This document shows positions 6,385 to 64,000 of a DNA stretch of 64,000 nucleotides, piece by piece. The stretch lies in the NCBI RefSeq assembly GCF_002161355.1, contig NZ_NFHL01000001.1:248001-312000 (forward strand), written 5' to 3'. The translations under genes and the position numbers were made by a program. Origin of the DNA: Lachnoclostridium sp. An76 (lineage in GTDB: Bacteria > Bacillota > Clostridia > Lachnospirales > Lachnospiraceae). How positions within the stretch are numbered: position 1 is the first letter of the stretch; each line of letters starts with the position of its first letter. A model generated the notes under the pieces. That model saw nothing but the letters and a program-made list of their open reading frames with translations. It ran no database searches and had not been told where the DNA came from.

Positions 6385-7695
6385 TTATAAAAGTTCGCGT
6401 ATCCTGTCCATTGAGACCACTCCTGCGTCGATCATACTCTGCAGGGATTTCAGTATCCCCAGCTTCGCATGCGTCCATGTAAGTCCGCCCTGAAAATACA
6501 CGGCATACGGCGGTTTGATCGGTCCGTCCGCGGACAGCTCGATAGATGATCCCTGGACAAAGGCTCCGGCTGCCATGATCACATCGCTGTCATAGCCGGG
6601 CATTGCCCACGGCTCAGGGGACACATAGCTGTCCACAGGGGCCGCTGCCTGGATACCTTTGCAGAACGCGACCACGCCCTCCGGCGAGCCCAGTGTCACT
6701 GCCTGGATGATGTCATGGCGGGACTCTTTTCCGTCCGGCACCACCGGATATCCCAGCTTCTCATAGATATTTGCCGCGAACACCGCTCCTTTGAGCGCGC
6801 CGCACACCACAGTCGGGGCGAGGAAAAATCCCTGGTAAAAGGACTGCATCACTCCCAGGGAAGCGCCCACCTCTTTGCCGAGTCCGGGGGAAGTAAGCCT
6901 GTACGCGCAGTTCTCGATCAGCTCTTCTTTTCCCGCGATGTAACCGCCGATCGGGGCAAGGCCGCCGCCCGGGTTTTTGATCAGAGAGCCAACGATCATG
7001 TCCGCTCCCACATCGCTGGGCTCGATCCGTTCCACAAACTCTCCGTAGCAGTTATCTACCATGCAGATCACATCCGGGCGTCTCTCCTTGATAAATGCGA
7101 TCAATTCCCCGATCTTTTCTACGGAATAGCTGGGACGGGTCTGATATCCCTTGGAGCGCTGGATAGTCACAAGTTTTGTCCTCTCATTTAACGCTGCCTC
7201 GATCGCAGGATAGTCGAAATATCCGTCTTCCAGAAGCTCCACCTGCCGGTAAGTGATCCCGTACTCGGCAAGGGAACCTTTGGACGGCCGGATCCCGATC
7301 ACTTCCTCCAAAGTATCATACGGTTTTCCCACCGGGGAGAGAAGCTCGTCCCCGGGACGCAGGTTTGCCGCAAGGGCAAGAGCCAGCGCGTGTGTGCCGC
7401 AGGTGATCTGCGGGCGGACAAGTGCTGCTTCTGTGTGGAAGGCTGAGGCATAGACCTGTTCCAGCGTATCCCTTCCCTGGTCATTGTACCCGTATCCGCT
7501 GACATAGTTAAAGCAGCCTTCGCTCACCCGGTTCTCCTGCATTGCATGGATGACCTTGAGCTGGTTATATTCTGCTGTCTCGTCAAATCCGCGGAAACGC
7601 TCCTTTAAGCTCTCTTCCGTCTTCTGCCCGTACTTCCAGACTTCTTCGGAAATGCCGAGCTTCTGGTACATAGATTGTGATTCTGTCTGGTTCAT
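6385..7695 (-). CDS. methionine gamma-lyase family protein (aluminium-resistance/YnbB-like PLP enzyme)
   Basis: 436 residues. It has a fold-type I PLP-dependent domain: SGYGYNDQGRDTLEQVYA near 70, the cofactor-stacking region PQITCGTHA, the aspartate in MVDNCYGEF (about 230) and the Schiff-base lysine in GSLIKNPGGG (about 255). This is the family often named aluminium resistance or cystathionine-beta-lyase-like, regularly found beside miaA in Firmicutes. The true substrate is not known. The ATG overlaps the miaA stop (ATGA), with AGGG upstream. Confidence 0.9.
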   Translation of the reverse strand: MNQTESQSMYQKLGISEEVWKYGQKTEESLKERFRGFDETAEYNQLKVIHAMQENRVSEGCFNYVSGYGYNDQGRDTLEQVYASAFHTEAALVRPQITCGTHALALALAANLRPGDELLSPVGKPYDTLEEVIGIRPSKGSLAEYGITYRQVELLEDGYFDYPAIEAALNERTKLVTIQRSKGYQTRPSYSVEKIGELIAFIKERRPDVICMVDNCYGEFVERIEPSDVGADMIVGSLIKNPGGGLAPIGGYIAGKEELIENCAYRLTSPGLGKEVGASLGVMQSFYQGFFLAPTVVCGALKGAVFAANIYEKLGYPVVPDGKESRHDIIQAVTLGSPEGVVAFCKGIQAAAPVDSYVSPEPWAMPGYDSDVIMAAGAFVQGSSIELSADGPIKPPYAVYFQGGLTWTHAKLGILKSLQSMIDAGVVSMDRIRELL

Positions 7696-8639
7696 TTTAT
7701 TATCCCTCTGTTCTTCAGTTCTTTTCTCATAAATTCCACGACGGCGTCGTCGGACTGCCCGATGACAGACTTATCCGCCCATATGACGTCCCGCTCCCGC
7801 TTAAACCAGGTGAGCTGCCGCTTTGCGAAATGGCGGGTGTCTCTTTTGATGATGCGCACCGCCTCCTCCAGCGTGCATTCCCCGTCAAGATAAGCGTAAA
7901 GTTCCTTGTAGCCAAGCCCCTGCATGGCAGTGGACTCTCTCTTCACTCCGCGCTCCTTCAGATACCGCACTTCTTCGAGAAGCCCTTCTTCCATCATCTT
8001 GTCCACTCTCCTGTCGATCCGCTCATACAGCCGGCTCCTCTCGTCCGTCAGGACAAAGTAAGCGAAATCATAAGGCGAGCTCTTTTCCCGCTCCGCCTCA
8101 TTATGTTCGGAAATCTTCCCGCCGGTCTGATGGTGGAATTCCAGGGCCCGGATCATGCGCTTGATATTGTGCGGGTGGATTTCTTCCGCTGCTTTCGGAT
8201 CCGCTTCCCGCAGCATGGCGTGGAGATATTCCCCACCCTTTTCTTCCGATGTTTTTTCCAGAGAGCGGCGGTATGATGTGTCTCCGTCATTCTCCGTAAA
8301 ATCAATATCATAGAGGAGCGCCTGGATATAAAATCCGGTCCCCCCTGCCACAAGAGGGATCTTCCCTTTCGCATAGATCTCCTCAGCAGCTGCTTTCGCC
8401 ATCTGCTGGAAGCGTACCACGTTAAACTCTTCCTCCGGTTCCAGCACATCGATCAGATAGTGGGGCACTCCCTCCATCTCTTCCTGCCGGATCTTTGCCG
8501 AGCCGATATCCATATGGCGGTATACCTGCATGGAATCCGCGGAGATGATCTCCGCGCCAATGGCTTTTGCCAGGCGTATGGACGCGGCGGTCTTTCCCAC
8601 AGCGGTAGGGCCTGCAAGTATGATCAGTGGTCTTTTCAT
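7692..8639 (-). CDS. miaA: tRNA dimethylallyltransferase
   Basis: 315 residues, normal length. It transfers a dimethylallyl group to adenosine 37 of tRNAs reading UNN codons, which steadies codon pairing. Visible motifs: P-loop GPTAVGKTAA (about 10-19), SADSMQVYRHMDIGSAK (about 34-50), the VGGTGFYIQALL segment (about 99-110) and the tail RDTRHFAKRQLTWFKR. The ATG at 8639 shares one base with the mutL stop, giving tight coupling. It sits in the common mutS-mutL-miaA order. Confidence 0.97.
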   Translation of the reverse strand: MKRPLIILAGPTAVGKTAASIRLAKAIGAEIISADSMQVYRHMDIGSAKIRQEEMEGVPHYLIDVLEPEEEFNVVRFQQMAKAAAEEIYAKGKIPLVAGGTGFYIQALLYDIDFTENDGDTSYRRSLEKTSEEKGGEYLHAMLREADPKAAEEIHPHNIKRMIRALEFHHQTGGKISEHNEAEREKSSPYDFAYFVLTDERSRLYERIDRRVDKMMEEGLLEEVRYLKERGVKRESTAMQGLGYKELYAYLDGECTLEEAVRIIKRDTRHFAKRQLTWFKRERDVIWADKSVIGQSDDAVVEFMRKELKNRGIIK

Positions 8640-10753
8640 TATACGATCCTCTTAAATTTCTTTTCCAGTTCTTTTTTTGTCATTGCGATAATGGTCGGCC
8701 TGCCATGGGGACAATGGTACGGATTGTCCAGGGTGAGCAGCTCCCCGATCAGAGCGTCAACCTCCTGGGCGGAAAGCCTGTTGTTTCCTTTCACAGCGGC
8801 TTTGCAGGACATGGACGCTACTTTCTCGTCGATCAGATCCGGCGTCATGGACGTATTCAGCCCGTCCGACAGGTCATCGATCATCTCCATCAGCAGTTCT
8901 TTTTTCGCGATGCCGAACAGATTGTCCGGCACTGCGCGCACTGCATACTCTTCGGGGCCAAAGGGCTCGATCTCAAACCCGATCCGTGTGAACCGGTCCA
9001 TATGTTCCTCCAGAAGCCTTGCCTCCTGCATGGAGAGCGTCAATATGATCGGCGGACTTAAATACTGGGAAGTAAACTCCCTTGTCTTCATCCCTTTGAG
9101 CGTGCGCTCATAAAGCACCCTCTCATGGGCTGCATGCTGGTCTATAATGTACAGGCTGTCCTGAAACTGCACGAGCCAGTATGTGTCAAACACCTGTCCG
9201 ATCAGCCTGTATTCCGCGCGGACATCCCGTTTTAAGAAATTCTCCTCAAAAAGATCAAGCTGTTGGGGTTTCTGAGGCGCCTCAGATGGTGCTTCCTCTT
9301 TGGGAACCGGGGTTTCCTCTGGTTTTAGCTCTGCCGGGCAGGCTTCCTGATGTACTTTCTCTTCCTTCTCCGGCGCCTGAACGTCTCCCGGTGTCCGGAC
9401 TTTCTCCGCGCCGTATCTTACAGTCTCCCGGATCCTGTCCGCCTGTGTTTCCGGGCGGTAGATCCCGCTTCGGTCCGCCACCTCCGCGGAGGACATCCTC
9501 TCATGGTAGGCAGTGACCCTCTCCCTCATCTTCCGGATAAAGTAATCCTCATCATGCACCTCTTCCTGCGCTGGAGGCTGTACAGCTTCCGGCGCAGGAA
9601 GAGGTGCAGCTCCCGGCTTTACATCCGCAGATACAAAGGCATCAGCAGCCGTATTTCTCGGGCGCAGCAGGAAGGGGCTCTCTTTCTGTCCCGCCCTTTC
9701 CTGTGCAGCCTTCCCGGGGCCTTCCGGCTGTACCGGTTCCGGCACTTCCGCTCTCTGGATCAGCTCCGGTTCCAGCAGCCTGCGGTGCACGCCCTCAAAG
9801 ACCGTGTTGTACACGTCCTGCTGTCTCTGGAAGCGCAGTTCCATCTTGGTGGGATGGACATTGACGTCGATCGTCTCCCCGTCCACATGGAAATGGAGGA
9901 CTGCAAAAGGAAATTTATGCTGCATGGTAAAGTCTTTGTATGCATCCTCCAGAGATTTTGAGATCATAGGACTTTTTACGTACCTGCCGTTCACAAAGAA
10001 ATTTTCAAAGTTCCTGTTTCCTCTCGTGATGACCGGTTTCCCGAGGTAGCCCGTGATCCTCAGACCCGATTTTTCATAATCAATGTCCAGCAGATTGGCC
10101 GCAATGTCACGCCCGTATATGTTATAGATCACGTCTTTTAATTTTCCGTTTCCCGAAGTCCTTAGCTTCTCCTGGTTATTGTTTTTAAAGAGAAACGCCA
10201 CTTCCGGATGGGACAGCGCCAGGTGCATGAGCAGGTCCTGGACATGCCCTGCTTCTGTCATGGGTGTCTTTAAGAACTTCCGCCTTGCAGGCACATTGTA
10301 AAAGAGCTGGTGCACAAGAAACGTCGTTCCATTGGGCGCGCCGGTCTCCTCTAAGGAGACTTCCTTTCCGCCTTCGATCACATACCTTGTCCCGAACTCG
10401 CAGTCCCCGGTCTTTGTGATCAGCTCTGTGCGCGTCACTGCCGCGATACTCGAGAGCGCCTCGCCGCGGAAGCCCAGAGAGCTGATGTGCATCAGGTCTT
10501 CCACGCTGCGGATCTTGCTCGTAGAGTGGCGCAGGAAAGCGCTCCTCACCTCATCGTGGGGGATGCCGCAGCCGTTGTCTGTCACGCGGATAAAGTCAAT
10601 GCCGCCGTCCCGGATCTCCACTGTCACGGAATCCGCCCCGGCGTCGATGGCATTTTCCACCAGTTCTTTTACAATAGAAGCCGGGCGCTCGATAACCTCG
10701 CCCGCCGCGATCTTATCAATCGTCACCTGATCCAATACCTGAATGTGGGGCAT
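8639..10753 (-). CDS. mutL: DNA mismatch repair protein MutL
   Basis: 704 residues. The GHKL ATPase domain has KELVENAIDAGA, DNGCGI and FLRHSTSK with SSLGFRGEALSSIA; the transducer domain carries NVHPTKMELRF (about 300). A Pro/Glu-rich linker of roughly 170 residues follows. The C-terminal endonuclease/dimer domain has the metal-binding DQHAAHERVLYE motif and the terminal CPHGRP, so this is a nicking MutL of the type in bacteria lacking MutH. It follows mutS with a 16-nt gap. It acts after MutS in strand-directed mismatch repair. Confidence 0.97.
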   Translation of the reverse strand: MPHIQVLDQVTIDKIAAGEVIERPASIVKELVENAIDAGADSVTVEIRDGGIDFIRVTDNGCGIPHDEVRSAFLRHSTSKIRSVEDLMHISSLGFRGEALSSIAAVTRTELITKTGDCEFGTRYVIEGGKEVSLEETGAPNGTTFLVHQLFYNVPARRKFLKTPMTEAGHVQDLLMHLALSHPEVAFLFKNNNQEKLRTSGNGKLKDVIYNIYGRDIAANLLDIDYEKSGLRITGYLGKPVITRGNRNFENFFVNGRYVKSPMISKSLEDAYKDFTMQHKFPFAVLHFHVDGETIDVNVHPTKMELRFQRQQDVYNTVFEGVHRRLLEPELIQRAEVPEPVQPEGPGKAAQERAGQKESPFLLRPRNTAADAFVSADVKPGAAPLPAPEAVQPPAQEEVHDEDYFIRKMRERVTAYHERMSSAEVADRSGIYRPETQADRIRETVRYGAEKVRTPGDVQAPEKEEKVHQEACPAELKPEETPVPKEEAPSEAPQKPQQLDLFEENFLKRDVRAEYRLIGQVFDTYWLVQFQDSLYIIDQHAAHERVLYERTLKGMKTREFTSQYLSPPIILTLSMQEARLLEEHMDRFTRIGFEIEPFGPEEYAVRAVPDNLFGIAKKELLMEMIDDLSDGLNTSMTPDLIDEKVASMSCKAAVKGNNRLSAQEVDALIGELLTLDNPYHCPHGRPTIIAMTKKELEKKFKRIV

Positions 10754-60323: not shown

Positions 60324-60400
60324 GTGCAATTCCTTTCTGTAAAACAGGGTAATAAAATTGGTCTGAAAGCTTTCTGTAAAGTATAACGGATGAAACGGAG

Positions 60401-60462
60401 AAAAAAACAAAGCCGAACGGCTAAATTACTGTTTTAAGTCAATAATTAAGCCGCTCGGCTAA
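60401..60462 (-). terminator. long terminator after the TIR-propeller gene
   Basis: Minus strand: AGCCGAGCGGCT...AGCCGTTCGGCT, with AATTATTG/CAGTAATT extending the stem to about 20 bp, followed by TTGTTTTTTT. It separates the PDZ/TIR unit from the sigma operon. Confidence 0.95.
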
Positions 60463-60467
60463 GAAGG

Positions 60468-62015
60468 TCAGGAATGATTGTCTTCTGTCAGTTCCCTCCC
60501 CTTTTTTATCAAATCTTCCAATGTATATGCCGGATAAACGCGGATCTGATCACTTTCCATATCAGACTTTATGATCTTTTTTGTATCGGGCAGATAGGTT
60601 CTCATCCCAGGAATCGCTGCTGTCTGGGTCCATTCCTCCATGGATATTCTTACTCCCTGTGTTTCGCCTGTAAGATCCCACAAATACATGGTTTGTCCTC
60701 CACTCTCTTCAAGCACGGCAAATTCCGACTCCCCGCCTGCTCCCTGCAGACGGATACTGCCTTCCTTTTCCCCATTTTCTGTATTATATATTGAAACAGT
60801 ATAGGTATTATCCCACATTAGTATATAACGGTCATCTACGGCAAACCGGATCTCACTGACCATCTCCGCAGGGATATCTGACTCAATCTCCTGCTCTGTT
60901 TTTCCACTCTCCGTATTATAAATCCTCAGGCAACCATCAGGTTCCAGCGAAGCGATCCACGACCTGACTTCACCAACACATACAGCAGGACTCATCTCCT
61001 CTCTGCAATGGCTTTCAATAAAGCGCCATTCTTCCTTCTCCAGAGAAAAAACCGCATATCCGGTTAATTCCTTTCCGCCTATACTTTCGTACAAAGTTAC
61101 AACAGCACAGCCATTTGCGCCAATATGAAGACTTACGTTTTTGGGGTCATCCCGATCAATCCCATAAATACTCCCTTCATAAGGGAGAGCCGTACTTTTT
61201 TTCTTTTCTCCATCTACCCACCATGACAGAACATAGGTATAATCCTCGTCCAAGTCAATGTCTGCTGAGAACACAGGGCTGCCCGCCGCTTTCGGAGCCG
61301 TACACATATGGAGACCGCCATGCTCATCCAGATCTTCGTATCTGTAAAATCGGTCATTTCCTATGTCATAGACCGACTCACTGAAGATCAGTTTCTGCTC
61401 ATCAGCAGAAAAACCAAAAAACTCCATTCCTCTGATATCATTATATTCTTCCGGCACCTCTGCCGATGATCTTGGAACAAGTGTGGAAGCATCCAAAAAC
61501 CACAGCACATCACCATACAGATCCGCCGCAAGGATAATATCTCCTGAGGGGAACGGATACATCCGGTCCCAGCAATGGATATAATCAGAAGATCTTTCTT
61601 CATTTTCATCCGTCATCGGATCCATATAATTCTTATCCCCTGTTTTTCTCAATATAACCACATTGCTTCTGTCATCATCCGGGATCCCGAATACAAATTC
61701 TCCTTCCAGACCTCCGCATGACAAAGCATAGTTCAGGTTGATACCGCTTGTCCAGGAATCTCCATACCCATACTCAAATTCAAGTAAACCGATGCTAAGA
61801 GTACCGCAGCTTCCATTTTCCATAACCACCCGGAAATCCAATTCTCTTCCGTCTTTCCAGTATGCGCTCAACACAGGGACCGGCAGATTGTGTACGAGCT
61901 TAGCTTCTCCCGTATGAAAATTAAAATAAACTGCGCAGGTATCATAAAAACAGACAGCTGCATGTTCTCCCATAAGATATAACGGCGACAAAAGCGCCCA
62001 TCCGGAGAAAAACAA
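60468..62015 (-). CDS. beta-propeller (WD40-like) C-terminal part of split TIR protein
   Basis: 515 residues in the reading frame; the TTG at 62015 has no ribosome site and is not a real start. The protein is rich in repeated blade patterns (FHTGEAKLVHN; TESGKTEQEIES; NTENGEKEGSIRL), each with Asp/Gly turns and buried Trp/Tyr, as in WD40 or quinoprotein-like propellers. It continues the blades that begin in the TIR frame (VCFSPDG). Two one-base changes (near 61990-61993 and 61969-61971) would join both parts into one protein of about 951 residues. Confidence 0.8.
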   Translation of the reverse strand: MFFSGWALLSPLYLMGEHAAVCFYDTCAVYFNFHTGEAKLVHNLPVPVLSAYWKDGRELDFRVVMENGSCGTLSIGLLEFEYGYGDSWTSGINLNYALSCGGLEGEFVFGIPDDDRSNVVILRKTGDKNYMDPMTDENEERSSDYIHCWDRMYPFPSGDIILAADLYGDVLWFLDASTLVPRSSAEVPEEYNDIRGMEFFGFSADEQKLIFSESVYDIGNDRFYRYEDLDEHGGLHMCTAPKAAGSPVFSADIDLDEDYTYVLSWWVDGEKKKSTALPYEGSIYGIDRDDPKNVSLHIGANGCAVVTLYESIGGKELTGYAVFSLEKEEWRFIESHCREEMSPAVCVGEVRSWIASLEPDGCLRIYNTESGKTEQEIESDIPAEMVSEIRFAVDDRYILMWDNTYTVSIYNTENGEKEGSIRLQGAGGESEFAVLEESGGQTMYLWDLTGETQGVRISMEEWTQTAAIPGMRTYLPDTKKIIKSDMESDQIRVYPAYTLEDLIKKGRELTEDNHS

Positions 62016-63325
62016 ACGTCGGAGAGAGAAGTCCCTTCATCAGTCAGCTCCATATTCTCTGTCTGTGCCAGAATACTGCCAGTGGAAGAAGAATAGAAAC
62101 TGATCTTTTCATCTTCTTCCACTTCCCCGTCTGCTTTATACTGTTCATACACAGCTATCATTTCCCCGTCTGCCGAGACTGCTTTTTCAGCGGAGGAAAT
62201 CTGTTCATAGTCAATACGCTGCTTCTCTGCTCCCGTCTTTGTATCAAGAAGAACCATTTCCGAAAAGCTGTCACAAAAAACCTTGCTGCCGTTTTCAGGA
62301 AGAAAGAGCACTCCCTGTTTTCCTTCCACATCCTCCAGCATATGCTCCCATAAGCAGCCGCCGTTTTTTCCATTGTATCCTCTCACGAATCCGAATTCAT
62401 CAACAGTGACAGCCAGACTGCCGTCTGAAGACACGACCATATCGGTAATCGGTGTATCCTGATGGATCATGCAGTCCACGCGCATTGCGCTGTCACAGTA
62501 TGCATAGAGGGCATTGCTCAGGGCATACTCAGCCCCAGCAGACGGCGGACGACTATCATCTTTCCCCTGCGGCAGTGCTGCCAGTGCGCTTTCCACCGCA
62601 GAATATCGATCCCCGTCCGCAAGGTACTGCTCACTTAGCAGAGCAAGCGCATAGGACTCATTTTCCTGTGAACGCCGGTACTGTTCCTCTATGTCCGCAT
62701 TCTTTTTCACAAGCATTCCTGCAAATGCAGCAGCGATCACTGCGGTTCCGCCCAGCACAACTGATATTCTCTGCTGACGGTATCTTCTCTCGCGCTGCCA
62801 CAGAGCATCATATGGACATCTCAGTATTGCTGCTGCAAGACGGATAAATTCATTTTGTAATTTTCGCAGGACAGCCGCCGCATTATCCCCTGAAATATTT
62901 GCCGCAAGCGGCTCCACCTCCCGCACTGATCCATCATCCGGATTGCGCTGGTGTGTCAGCAGATCTGGAAAAGACTCTTCCGGCGTCCCATCCGCAAGTA
63001 CGGCAAGAATATGGCTTCCGTCATGATGCTCCCGGAAATACTCGATCTCTCTTCTTACCCACATGGACTTTGGCGTCTCCGGTGTACAGATTACGATCAA
63101 AAAATCAGATCTGTCCAGGGCGGTATAAATATCGGAATTAAGATCACTGGAAATAGGCAGTTCATCCTCATCACGGAACACTTTTCCAAGCCTCTTCTCT
63201 CCATTTTTCCGTAACCGCACCGGTACGCGGTAATGTTCCAGCAGCCGATGCAGTCTTTTCGCAACCGCAGCGTCAAGTTTCTTATGCCTGTAGCTGATAA
63301 ATGCAATATAACGGTCCTCTGTCAT
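61868..63325 (-). CDS. TIR domain membrane protein with start of beta-propeller (frameshifted)
   Basis: 485 residues. TIR domain (about 1-150): DRYIAFISYRHKKLDAAVA, GKVFRDEDELPISSDL, DFLIVICTPETPKSMWVRRE with Glu93 at the place of the catalytic NAD-cleaving Glu of TIR enzymes. One transmembrane helix (about 187-206), a helical linker, and then propeller blades from about 275 (QDTPITDMVVSSDGSLAVT). The last about 35 residues after VCFSPDGRF are out of frame. Directly downstream (22 nt) of a PDZ protein gene. The role is unknown; TIR plus sensor repeats suggests stress or phage sensing, which is inference. Confidence 0.85.
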   Translation of the reverse strand: MTEDRYIAFISYRHKKLDAAVAKRLHRLLEHYRVPVRLRKNGEKRLGKVFRDEDELPISSDLNSDIYTALDRSDFLIVICTPETPKSMWVRREIEYFREHHDGSHILAVLADGTPEESFPDLLTHQRNPDDGSVREVEPLAANISGDNAAAVLRKLQNEFIRLAAAILRCPYDALWQRERRYRQQRISVVLGGTAVIAAAFAGMLVKKNADIEEQYRRSQENESYALALLSEQYLADGDRYSAVESALAALPQGKDDSRPPSAGAEYALSNALYAYCDSAMRVDCMIHQDTPITDMVVSSDGSLAVTVDEFGFVRGYNGKNGGCLWEHMLEDVEGKQGVLFLPENGSKVFCDSFSEMVLLDTKTGAEKQRIDYEQISSAEKAVSADGEMIAVYEQYKADGEVEEDEKISFYSSSTGSILAQTENMELTDEGTSLSDVCFSPDGRFCRRYILWENMQLSVFMIPAQFILIFIREKLSSYTICRSLC

Positions 63326-63347
63326 GATCCTTTCTCTCTCCTGTCAT

Positions 63348-64000
63348 TCAGCCATCCGTTCTCACAGTCATTTTCCCGGAAAATCCTGTGTCTGCCGGCA
63401 GATTGAGCCTGATTACCACTCCGTCCCGCATGACTTCGATCCATCTGTCCTGCTCCTGATCCAACAGTCTGGAAAAATGGTTTTCTCCTGCGATCCGTTT
63501 TCCCCTCACTCCAATGATCAGGTCTTTGACCTGAAGTCCGGCTGCCTGTGCCTCTGTTGTCACCGCAGTAACTTCAATCCCGCAGTCCGCAGAAATATTC
63601 TCAAGGAATTCATTCAATACAGTTTCATCAATCTGCTCCCGCCAGGAAAGCGCGCCCGCAGAAGTCATCCAGCCAGTAACTGTGCTTTCGATCACATTCT
63701 CCTGCGCGCCAATCTCTATTAATTCTGCAATTGTTTCATCTGCCTTTGCAGCCGCATTTTCCGCATCTCCAGAAAGCAGAGACTGAGTGATCTCTGCCCA
63801 GGCGGTCACTGTACTCATATAGGGAAATTGTCCCGCTAAAAGAAGATCATCCATATACTCCGAGGTTCCGCTCTCGAAAAGATCCGCCGTAACAAGCATC
63901 TCCAACGCCGAACAGTATTCCATCAGTTCATCCGAAGCCTCCAGATTATAGGGATCATCAACGATCCTTTCAACCACACTGAAATCCACATCATCCAGAG
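63348..64000 (-). CDS. PDZ domain protein, N-terminus beyond the window (partial)
   Basis: The frame is open to the right edge (LDD before the GTG at 63989), so the gene starts outside. Visible: an all-helical acidic part (about 1-120 of the visible sequence; TPR-like pattern with ALEMLV, LLLAGQF, AAAKADETIAEL) and a PDZ domain at the end (GIEVTAVTTEAQAAGLQVKD, then IIGVRGKRIAGENHFSRLL). PDZ domains bind C-termini or regulate proteases. No protease triad is in the visible part. Its 22-nt gap to the TIR gene marks an operon. Confidence 0.8.
   Translation of the reverse strand, partial: LDDVDFSVVERIVDDPYNLEASDELMEYCSALEMLVTADLFESGTSEYMDDLLLAGQFPYMSTVTAWAEITQSLLSGDAENAAAKADETIAELIEIGAQENVIESTVTGWMTSAGALSWREQIDETVLNEFLENISADCGIEVTAVTTEAQAAGLQVKDLIIGVRGKRIAGENHFSRLLDQEQDRWIEVMRDGVVIRLNLPADTGFSGKMTVRTDG

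What the first reader, a model, noticed from the sequence alone, without database searches (positions are those of the whole stretch)
60468..64000. PDZ protein plus TIR-transmembrane-beta-propeller protein: candidate undescribed sensing or defence system
Seen: a TIR domain with Glu93 at the NADase position, one membrane helix and a long propeller, coupled to an upstream gene with a helical region and a PDZ domain, closed by a strong terminator. Known: bacterial TIR domains often cleave NAD in antiphage systems, and propellers and PDZ domains are recognition modules. Inference: the propeller senses a ligand, the TIR acts as effector and the PDZ protein is a regulator. I know of no described system with this exact pair.
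Basis: partly seen in the sequence, partly recalled or inferred. Interest (0 to 1): 0.7.

Follow-up and report, generated by a model that had tools for sequence, protein, structure and literature searches.

The report
Membrane TIR receptors beside ryanodine-receptor-domain channel
The window's edge cuts through a six-gene bacterial cassette that pairs membrane-anchored TIR sensor-enzymes with proteins carrying the nucleotide-binding domain of animal ryanodine receptors, one of them channel-like, which suggests a TIR-made signal that acts on a ryanodine-type membrane protein.

Summary
The TIR-membrane helix-propeller gene is real. The "PDZ protein" is not a separate partner: it is the cut-off end of a second, larger TIR-helix-propeller gene (1222 aa) that continues beyond the window. 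The second TIR gene carries a 277-bp deletion in this genome and is intact in relatives.

Outside the window lies the better clue. An 88-aa protein that is plainly a ryanodine-receptor (RyR) domain (PDB RyR2, E 7e-46) overlaps the first TIR gene by 4 bp. Further upstream is a membrane protein with an RCK gating-ring fold and a second, weaker RyR domain. The ~10.7-kb block is a presence/absence cassette; a close relative has AbiE remnants at that site.

RyR genes sit beside TIR genes well above chance: 15 of 37 (0.55 expected), then 8 of 10 in seven further genomes (0.11 expected). Some are potassium-channel-RyR proteins. Phage RyR proteins bind cyclic ADP-ribose (preprint PMC13232231).

Best model: an outside propeller activates the inside TIR, whose NAD-derived signal acts on RyR-gated membrane effectors. 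Nothing here is shown biochemically.

The parts
63348..64000 (-). 3' end (last 216 residues and stop) of TIR1, a 1222-aa TIR-membrane helix-propeller-helical-PDZ-like gene; the rest lies outside the window (G000:C1:311348-315016)
   Evidence: open orthologues of 1222 and 1236 aa in G029 and G030
63402..63608 (-). PDZ-like domain at the C-terminus of TIR1 (weak in this copy)
   Evidence: PF17820 E 0.017, under the cut-off; PF17820 or PF13180 among the precomputed Pfam domains of several homologues
61868..63325 (-). TIR2, N-terminal open frame: TIR, membrane helix, start of propeller (22 bp after TIR1)
   Evidence: aligned with intact 1044-aa copy in G029
62975..63301 (-). TIR domain of TIR2 with conserved Glu93
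   Evidence: PF13676 E 1.7e-13; E in 241/243; profile match to plant and bacterial TIR NADases
62711..62767 (-). membrane helix of TIR2 (residues 187-205), arginine-rich flank on the TIR side
   Evidence: family-wide positive-inside pattern
61989..61989 (.). site of the 277-bp deletion that breaks TIR2 in this genome
60468..62015 (-). TIR2, C-terminal open frame: rest of the tandem propeller
   Evidence: fold of orthologue P0121
60400..60460 (-). intrinsic terminator closing the operon
   Evidence: hairpin -30.5 kcal/mol, z -7.8, followed by T run

Best explanation
The window's edge cuts a six-gene accessory operon (operon inferred from strand and spacing; reading order: RCK-RyR membrane protein 656 aa, M48 metallopeptidase, zinc-ribbon protein, stand-alone RyR domain 88 aa, TIR1, TIR2). 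TIR1 and TIR2 are single-pass receptors: the C-terminal propeller(s) outside, the TIR inside (predicted). When the propeller meets a cue of infection or envelope damage, the TIR uses its Glu to convert NAD+ into a cyclic ADP-ribose-type signal (inferred from family). The signal binds the RyR domains (inferred: ligand residues kept). The RyR domain of the RCK-gated membrane protein then changes ion flow and stops the cell, while the small coupled RyR protein buffers or hydrolyses the signal, or helps to sense it. Shown here: gene anatomy, RyR homology, RyR-TIR co-location, fold of the RCK-RyR part, cassette behaviour. Not shown: enzyme activity, ligand, channel activity, defence.
Against: 22 of 37 RyR matches in the order have no TIR within 10 kb (several at contig ends, eight in one genus at a shared chromosomal site), so RyR may have other uses. 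In 26 of 88 TIR-propeller loci the neighbour is a DHH phosphoesterase-like protein instead, and no locus is in both partner lists. Pfam alone does not reach its RyR cut-off for the 656-aa type, the Ruminococcus flavefaciens type (L061, L062), L173, L175 or L176, and gives no RyR hit for L026, L028, L029; L028's protein has no PDB match at E 1. In the R. flavefaciens type 7 of 7 sampled have N for H100 and C for D117; 5 of 15 stand-alone RyRs have T for H100; two animal RyR2 repeats have N at D117, one also N at H100. In the 656-aa type D628 does not sit in D117's column (1 of 11 has D there), although it is invariant. The own membrane partner has no Ion_trans hit; its membrane part is modelled at pLDDT about 41-62. 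TIR2 is broken in this genome. M48 and zinc-ribbon genes are unexplained. The RyR ligand data are from one preprint on phage proteins, where 6 of 8 tested homologues bound the signals and only RyDEP cleaved them.
Confidence: 0.5

Rival explanations
1. The TIRs are end effectors: activated TIRs destroy NAD+ directly, and the RyR proteins are safety devices that bind or break stray cADPR or ADPR; the RCK-RyR protein only adjusts ion balance.
For: Many bacterial TIRs deplete NAD+ (established knowledge; Cat1, start of abstract). The stand-alone RyR keeps both residues of the RyDEP catalytic dyad, fitting a hydrolase; its frame overlaps TIR1's start, as an off-switch might.
Against: RyR domains are fused to effector-like partners: potassium channels, a kinase protein with a CARF-PDDEXK-type nuclease match (L026), an AAA-like protein (L056; AAA under its cut-off). 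That looks like signal reception rather than clean-up.
Confidence: 0.2
2. Not defence: an envelope or nutrient sensing receptor of gut Clostridia, in which the propeller reads a glycan, peptide or wall state and the TIR-RyR-channel line sets potassium or membrane potential.
For: Propeller predicted outside. The M48 peptidase and PDZ-like domain would suit envelope quality control. PADLOC gave nothing for the three non-TIR upstream genes searched (zinc ribbon, M48, RCK-RyR); the four downstream window genes (sigma factor, ABC transporter genes and one unknown) were searched with NCBIfam only and gave no defence family (best 25 shown where more matched).
Against: Patchy: 4 of 58 congeners. Clean cassette, with abortive-infection AbiE remnants at the same site in a near relative. 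RyR elsewhere joins kinase and nuclease proteins.
Confidence: 0.22
3. One reading: a PDZ regulator gene paired with one TIR-propeller effector.
For: PDZ-like domain and TIR-propeller are adjacent in the window.
Against: The PDZ stretch is part of TIR1, one open frame of 1222 aa here and of similar length in relatives.
Confidence: 0.01
4. The operon is a decaying remnant in this genome without function.
For: TIR2 lost 277 bp; flanking genes also lack stretches that G440 and G441 have.
Against: TIR1, both RyR genes, M48 and zinc ribbon are open; intact TIR2 in G029, G030 and G014; full-length protein clusters with 124 and 452 members.
Confidence: 0.07

Closest known systems
Thoeris anti-phage systems (ThsB TIR plus ThsA)
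   Same: TIR enzyme with conserved Glu plus a neighbouring protein with a predicted ADP-ribose-type sensor domain; in type II a His-ADPR signal binds the macro domain of ThsA (passage of PMC12948488; that this effector acts at the membrane is recalled)
   Different: TIR is a membrane receptor with propellers; the neighbour carries RyR plus RCK, not SIR2-SLOG or macro; no ThsA match in PADLOC for the operon genes searched (the 88-aa RyR was not put to PADLOC); NCBIfam ThcB4 21.8 bits against a cut-off of 220
RyDEP and phage RyR-domain sponges (preprint PMC13232231)
   Same: RyR (R12, PF02026) domain with the same ligand residues; [quoted passage not shown]
   Different: There it is a phage counter-defence protein; here it is a cellular gene in a TIR operon or fused to membrane or nuclease proteins
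Animal ryanodine receptors, Repeat12 domain
   Same: 88-aa protein aligns with RyR1-3 repeats (E down to 7e-46); RyR on an ion-channel-like protein
   Different: The bacterial membrane proteins are RCK-type and far smaller; two RyR2 repeats compared here lack the D117 equivalent
RCK-gated channels: CASTOR/DMI1, GsuK, BK (Slo1), TrkA
   Different: RyR domain at the C-terminus; own copy lacks a recognisable pore domain by Pfam
Toll-like receptors and plant TIR receptors
   Same: TIR inside, large recognition domain; profile match to TLR2, ROQ1, L6, RUN1
   Different: Reversed order (TIR N-terminal), propeller instead of LRR, no shared descent of the whole receptor implied

Membership tests
Catalytic TIR domains (NADase/cyclase) | TIR domain and conserved catalytic Glu | tested here: met
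   PF13676 E 1.7e-13 (TIR2) and 9.5e-10 (TIR1); Glu in 241 of 243, Asp in 2; aligned to the S-W-..-E stretch of ROQ1 and L6 by profile. That this Glu is the catalytic one in ROQ1 is recalled
Catalytic TIR domains (NADase/cyclase) | NAD+ cleavage or cyclisation | not testable with these tools
   needs an enzyme assay
Catalytic TIR domains (NADase/cyclase) | TIR pocket in the predicted structure | tested here: inconclusive
   model of P0121 has alternating strands and helices at 1-145, but the fold searches list propeller matches only in the rows shown
Thoeris | ThsA-type effector (SIR2, SLOG, macro domain) beside the TIR | tested here: not met
   Pfam and PADLOC on the operon proteins searched found none
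Thoeris | TIR protein over a curated Thoeris cut-off | tested here: not met
   best NCBIfam hit ThcB4 21.8 bits, cut-off 220
RyR domain (PF02026), 88-aa protein | score over the curated cut-off and ligand residues H, W, H, D | tested here: met
   86.2 bits against 27.4; residues and spacing kept
RyR domain (PF02026), 656-aa protein | score over the curated cut-off | tested here: not met
   14.5 bits and 17.8 bits
RyR domain (PF02026), 656-aa protein | profile and fold similarity to solved RyR domains | tested here: met
RCK-gated ion channels | RCK gating-ring fold | tested here: met
RCK-gated ion channels | pore domain with potassium selectivity filter | tested here: not met
   no Ion_trans domain in the own protein; membrane part pLDDT about 41-62. 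Ion_trans_2 is met in the relatives L166, L173, L156
HtrA-type PDZ proteins | PDZ with protease domain | tested here: not met
   PDZ-like end only, no protease domain in TIR1
Anti-phage defence system | protects cells from phage | not testable with these tools
   only indirect: cassette behaviour and AbiE remnants at the same site

The most novel reading that the evidence does not exclude
Bacillota carry a widespread immune axis in which TIR enzymes, some of them membrane receptors shaped like inside-out Toll receptors, make cyclic ADP-ribose signals that open RyR-domain-gated RCK channels (some true potassium channels) or switch on RyR-linked kinase-nuclease proteins. This would be a bacterial counterpart of animal cADPR-ryanodine receptor signalling, and phage RyR sponges would be captured or matching copies of its sensor.
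Probability: 0.4. Interest if true: 0.95.

Novelty: new variant of a known kind. Interest (0 to 1): 0.82.

Why it matters
If true, it links three fields by one gene cluster: TIR immune signalling, RCK-gated channels, and the long debated role of cyclic ADP-ribose at ryanodine receptors. It gives small, soluble, testable proteins (an 88-aa RyR domain, isolated TIR domains) and a clear prediction: TIR product binds RyR and gates a membrane protein. It would also explain why phages carry RyR-domain sponges, and add ion channels to the proteins that TIR signals control.

Tried and rejected
PDZ gene as separate partner: rejected once the sequence beyond the window was read. Window TIR slice against PDB by single sequence: no hit at E 0.1; the profile A5 succeeded. 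L028's 780-aa partner against PDB by single sequence: no hit at E 1. Pfam RyR is under its cut-off or absent in several partner types, so profile and fold tests were added for the own one. My RyR model was seeded with L026, L028 and L029, so its scores for those three are circular; for them I rely on BLASTP. NCBIfam did not recognise the AbiE remnants of G440; PADLOC did. One regular expression of mine for the RyR core matched 0 of 21 because its spacing was written wrongly; the alignment is used instead. One script used a wrong frame for the small RyR protein; repeated correctly. A local alignment missed the deletion; the global one found it. The TIR fold of the model is not among the fold rows shown, which the propellers fill. 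Papers: PMC13232231 abstract, passages and sections 4, 5 and 27 read; PMC7159879 and PMC12948488 passages only; all others seen as search listings with starts of abstracts. One 2015 NAR paper that I asked for is not held. No paper joining RyR domains, TIR genes and channels in bacteria was seen in the listings of searches (some listings capped at 10 to 20 rows); the library holds open-licence PubMed Central papers only.
Full report
1. What is in the window. On the minus strand the window shows a 485-aa frame (61868-63325) with a TIR domain, a 515-aa frame (60468-62015), and an open-ended 216-aa frame at the window's edge (63348-63998). Pfam finds TIR_2 (E 1.7e-13) in the first, nothing firm in the second, and a sub-threshold PDZ_6 (E 0.017) in the third. 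A terminator follows at about 60400-60460 (-30.5 kcal/mol, z -7.8).

2. The PDZ gene is the tail of another TIR receptor. The window is G000:C1:248001-312000. Reading beyond it (L004 = C1:308001-327000) shows one open frame of 1222 aa, L004:3348-7016 (-), with TIR_2 (E 9.5e-10), a membrane helix, propeller-like matches, a helical part and the PDZ-like end. I call it TIR1, and the window's TIR-propeller gene TIR2; they are 22 bp apart and are distant relatives (39% identity over about 300 aa). The pair is found in G029, G030 and G014 of the same genus (in G014 TIR1 is split over two contigs).

3. TIR2 is broken here. Against the intact 1044-aa copy of G029 it lacks 277 bp at window 61989, with 2854 of 2858 other positions identical and no microhomology. 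Clusters of full-length copies have 124 and 452 members. The neighbouring stretch of this assembly also lacks segments that G440 and G441 have, so both a true deletion and an assembly fault remain possible.

5. The operon beyond the window. Reading order: a 656-aa membrane protein (L004:9021-10991), an M48 peptidase with zinc ribbon (8114-9040), a zinc-ribbon protein (7323-7856), an 88-aa protein (7013-7279), TIR1, TIR2. The 88-aa stop overlaps the TIR1 start as ATGA. The 88-aa protein is a RyR domain: PF02026 86.2 bits, cut-off 27.4; PDB matches are ryanodine receptors (RyR2 E 7.4e-46 for four repeats, best repeat 1.7e-12; RyR3 Repeat12 1.7e-29; bacterial 3nrt 1.3e-20). In the own genome the only two PF02026 matches at E up to 0.1 are this one and a weak one in the 656-aa protein (17.8 bits).

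7. What RyR domains bind. A 2026 preprint (PMC13232231; abstract, passages and sections 4, 5, 27 read; [quoted passage not shown] contacts are H75, W78, H100 and D117. The own 88-aa protein has H, W, H, D at offsets 0, +3, +25, +42, exactly as in RyDEP. In samples: 15 stand-alone RyRs, H75 15, W78 15, H100 10 (5 T), D117 15. Potassium-channel type (7): 6, 7, 7, 6. 656-aa type (11 of 21 used): H, W, H in 11; in D117's own column 1 has D, but D628 a few residues on is invariant. Other channel-like (5): 5, 5, 5, 2. L028/L029 type (2): 2, 2, 2, gap. Kinase type (2): 2, 2, 2, 0. AAA-like (1): all four. Genus-g26 type (2): all four. R. flavefaciens type (7): H and W 7, H100 and D117 lost in 7. Two animal RyR2 repeats: H, W, H, N and H, W, N, N. 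So ligand binding is plausible for most types and doubtful for the R. flavefaciens one.

8. TIR and RyR genes are neighbours far beyond chance. In 392 genomes of the order, 34 have a RyR match, 37 in all. In these 34 genomes 73 TIR_2 matches were found. 15 of 37 RyR matches are within 10 kb of a TIR, 10 of them within 400 bp; 0.55 expected under random placement, and 200,000 simulations never exceeded 7. Replicate: in 398 genomes of the phylum 10 have RyR; 7 are new; in these 8 of 10 RyR matches are within 10 kb of a TIR, 0.11 expected (distances read from the coordinates; one of the 8 is under the RyR cut-off). Three of the ten phylum genomes were already in the order set and are not counted twice. 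The seven TIR proteins there match neither the A1 nor the A4 profile at E 1 and have no helix window of 1.6 or more in residues 100-330, so they are of other, probably soluble kinds: the link is with TIR signalling and not with the propeller. RyR-centred regions were fetched for 36 of the 37 order matches (the own one was already held).

9. What the RyR is joined to. Beside TIR genes: potassium channels with TVGYGD filter (L166, Ion_trans_2 5.7e-16, RyR 2.7e-6; L173, 6.8e-15, RyR 3.5e-4 which is under the cut-off; L156 with one gene between); the TIR genes of L166 and L173 match the family profile into the propeller part. Also channel-like proteins without that filter (L160, L164, L174-L176; L164's TIR is not of the propeller family); a kinase protein with a RyR-like stretch (BLASTP to the 656-aa protein E 3e-8) and a CARF-PDDEXK-type match in L026; an AAA-like RyR protein in L056 (RyR E 7.1e-17; AAA under its cut-off). 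Potassium-channel-RyR proteins without a TIR within 10 kb also exist (L154, L163, L167, L168). In 88 loci around 92 TIR-propeller genes the same-strand neighbours fall into two main groups: RCK-RyR relatives (a cluster in 26 loci plus a related one in 4) and DHH-like proteins (26 loci; two checked by Pfam), with no locus in both; by my RyR model 23 of the 80 named loci hold a RyR-bearing ORF at E 1e-3, so not every member of the first group has a confirmed RyR.

10. Cassette. The 88-aa RyR occurs as an orthologue (83% or more) in 4 of 58 genomes of the genus; two others have weak matches in longer frames. In G440, whose sequence next to the block is 94.8% and 96.9% identical, own C1:308410-319094 is missing and replaced by about 965 bp that encode remnants of AbiEi and AbiEii (PADLOC E 5.9e-33 and 1.2e-34). 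G441 also lacks the block and has another ORF there. The block ends lie close to the operon ends. This is what accessory, probably defensive, cassettes look like, but it is not proof.

11. Mechanism. I propose: outer propeller senses; inner TIR makes an ADP-ribose-type signal; RyR domains receive it; the RCK-RyR membrane protein changes ion flow; the small RyR buffers, hydrolyses or helps to sense. Steps 1 and 2 are inferred from family knowledge and topology, step 3 from homology and residues, step 4 from fold and from the true potassium channels in relatives, step 5 is the weakest. Probabilities: tandem TIR pair 0.97; functional link of TIR and RyR 0.85; nucleotide signal 0.7; membrane effector 0.6; defence 0.6; whole chain about 0.5.

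12. Known or new. It works like Thoeris (TIR signal plus receiver) but fails the tested membership features: no ThsA domain, TIR far below curated cut-offs. The RyR domain is known in animals, bacteria and phages; RCK channels are known. The combination with TIR genes was not seen in nine searches of the open-licence library, which does not exclude prints elsewhere. I rate it a new variant of a known kind.

Noticed in passing
26 loci, e.g. L092:8470-9981, L100:8456-9994: A second partner type of TIR-propeller genes: about 510 aa, DHH (E 3.5e-14) and DHHA1 domains (two members checked; DHHA1 over its cut-off in one) plus a long unknown C-terminal part; a candidate signal-processing phosphoesterase.
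   Followed up: partly
L144:271-4482 and L026:587-4621: Large kinase proteins with a Card1-like or CARF-PDDEXK-type nuclease end, beside (L144) or fused to (L026) a RyR-like domain: possible RyR-gated nucleases.
   Followed up: partly
L005:3032-10249 (G000:C21): A separate cluster in the same genome with a SIR2 protein (ThsA PADLOC hit E 1.5e-14) next to a 190-aa TIR protein: looks Thoeris-like.
   Followed up: no
G000:C1:319095-327319 (L004/L192): The own assembly lacks several stretches (about 2.1 kb, 0.4 kb, 0.2 kb) that G440 has just beyond the cassette; with the 277-bp gap in TIR2 this may mean decay or assembly trouble.
   Followed up: partly
L153, L157-L159, L161, L162, L165, L169: In one genus (g26) a membrane RyR protein of about 480-500 aa sits near genes that look like alr and/or yebC (names recalled from sequence) in eight loci without a TIR within 10 kb.
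   Followed up: no
P0210: A 1479-aa relative carries a protein kinase domain together with TIR and propeller (precomputed Pfam).
   Followed up: no
L004:8114-9040: M48 peptidase with zinc ribbon and a zinc-ribbon protein keep company with the TIR-RyR operon in L004, L022, L024, L031 and L148, and in another order in L045 and L105; role unknown.
   Followed up: partly
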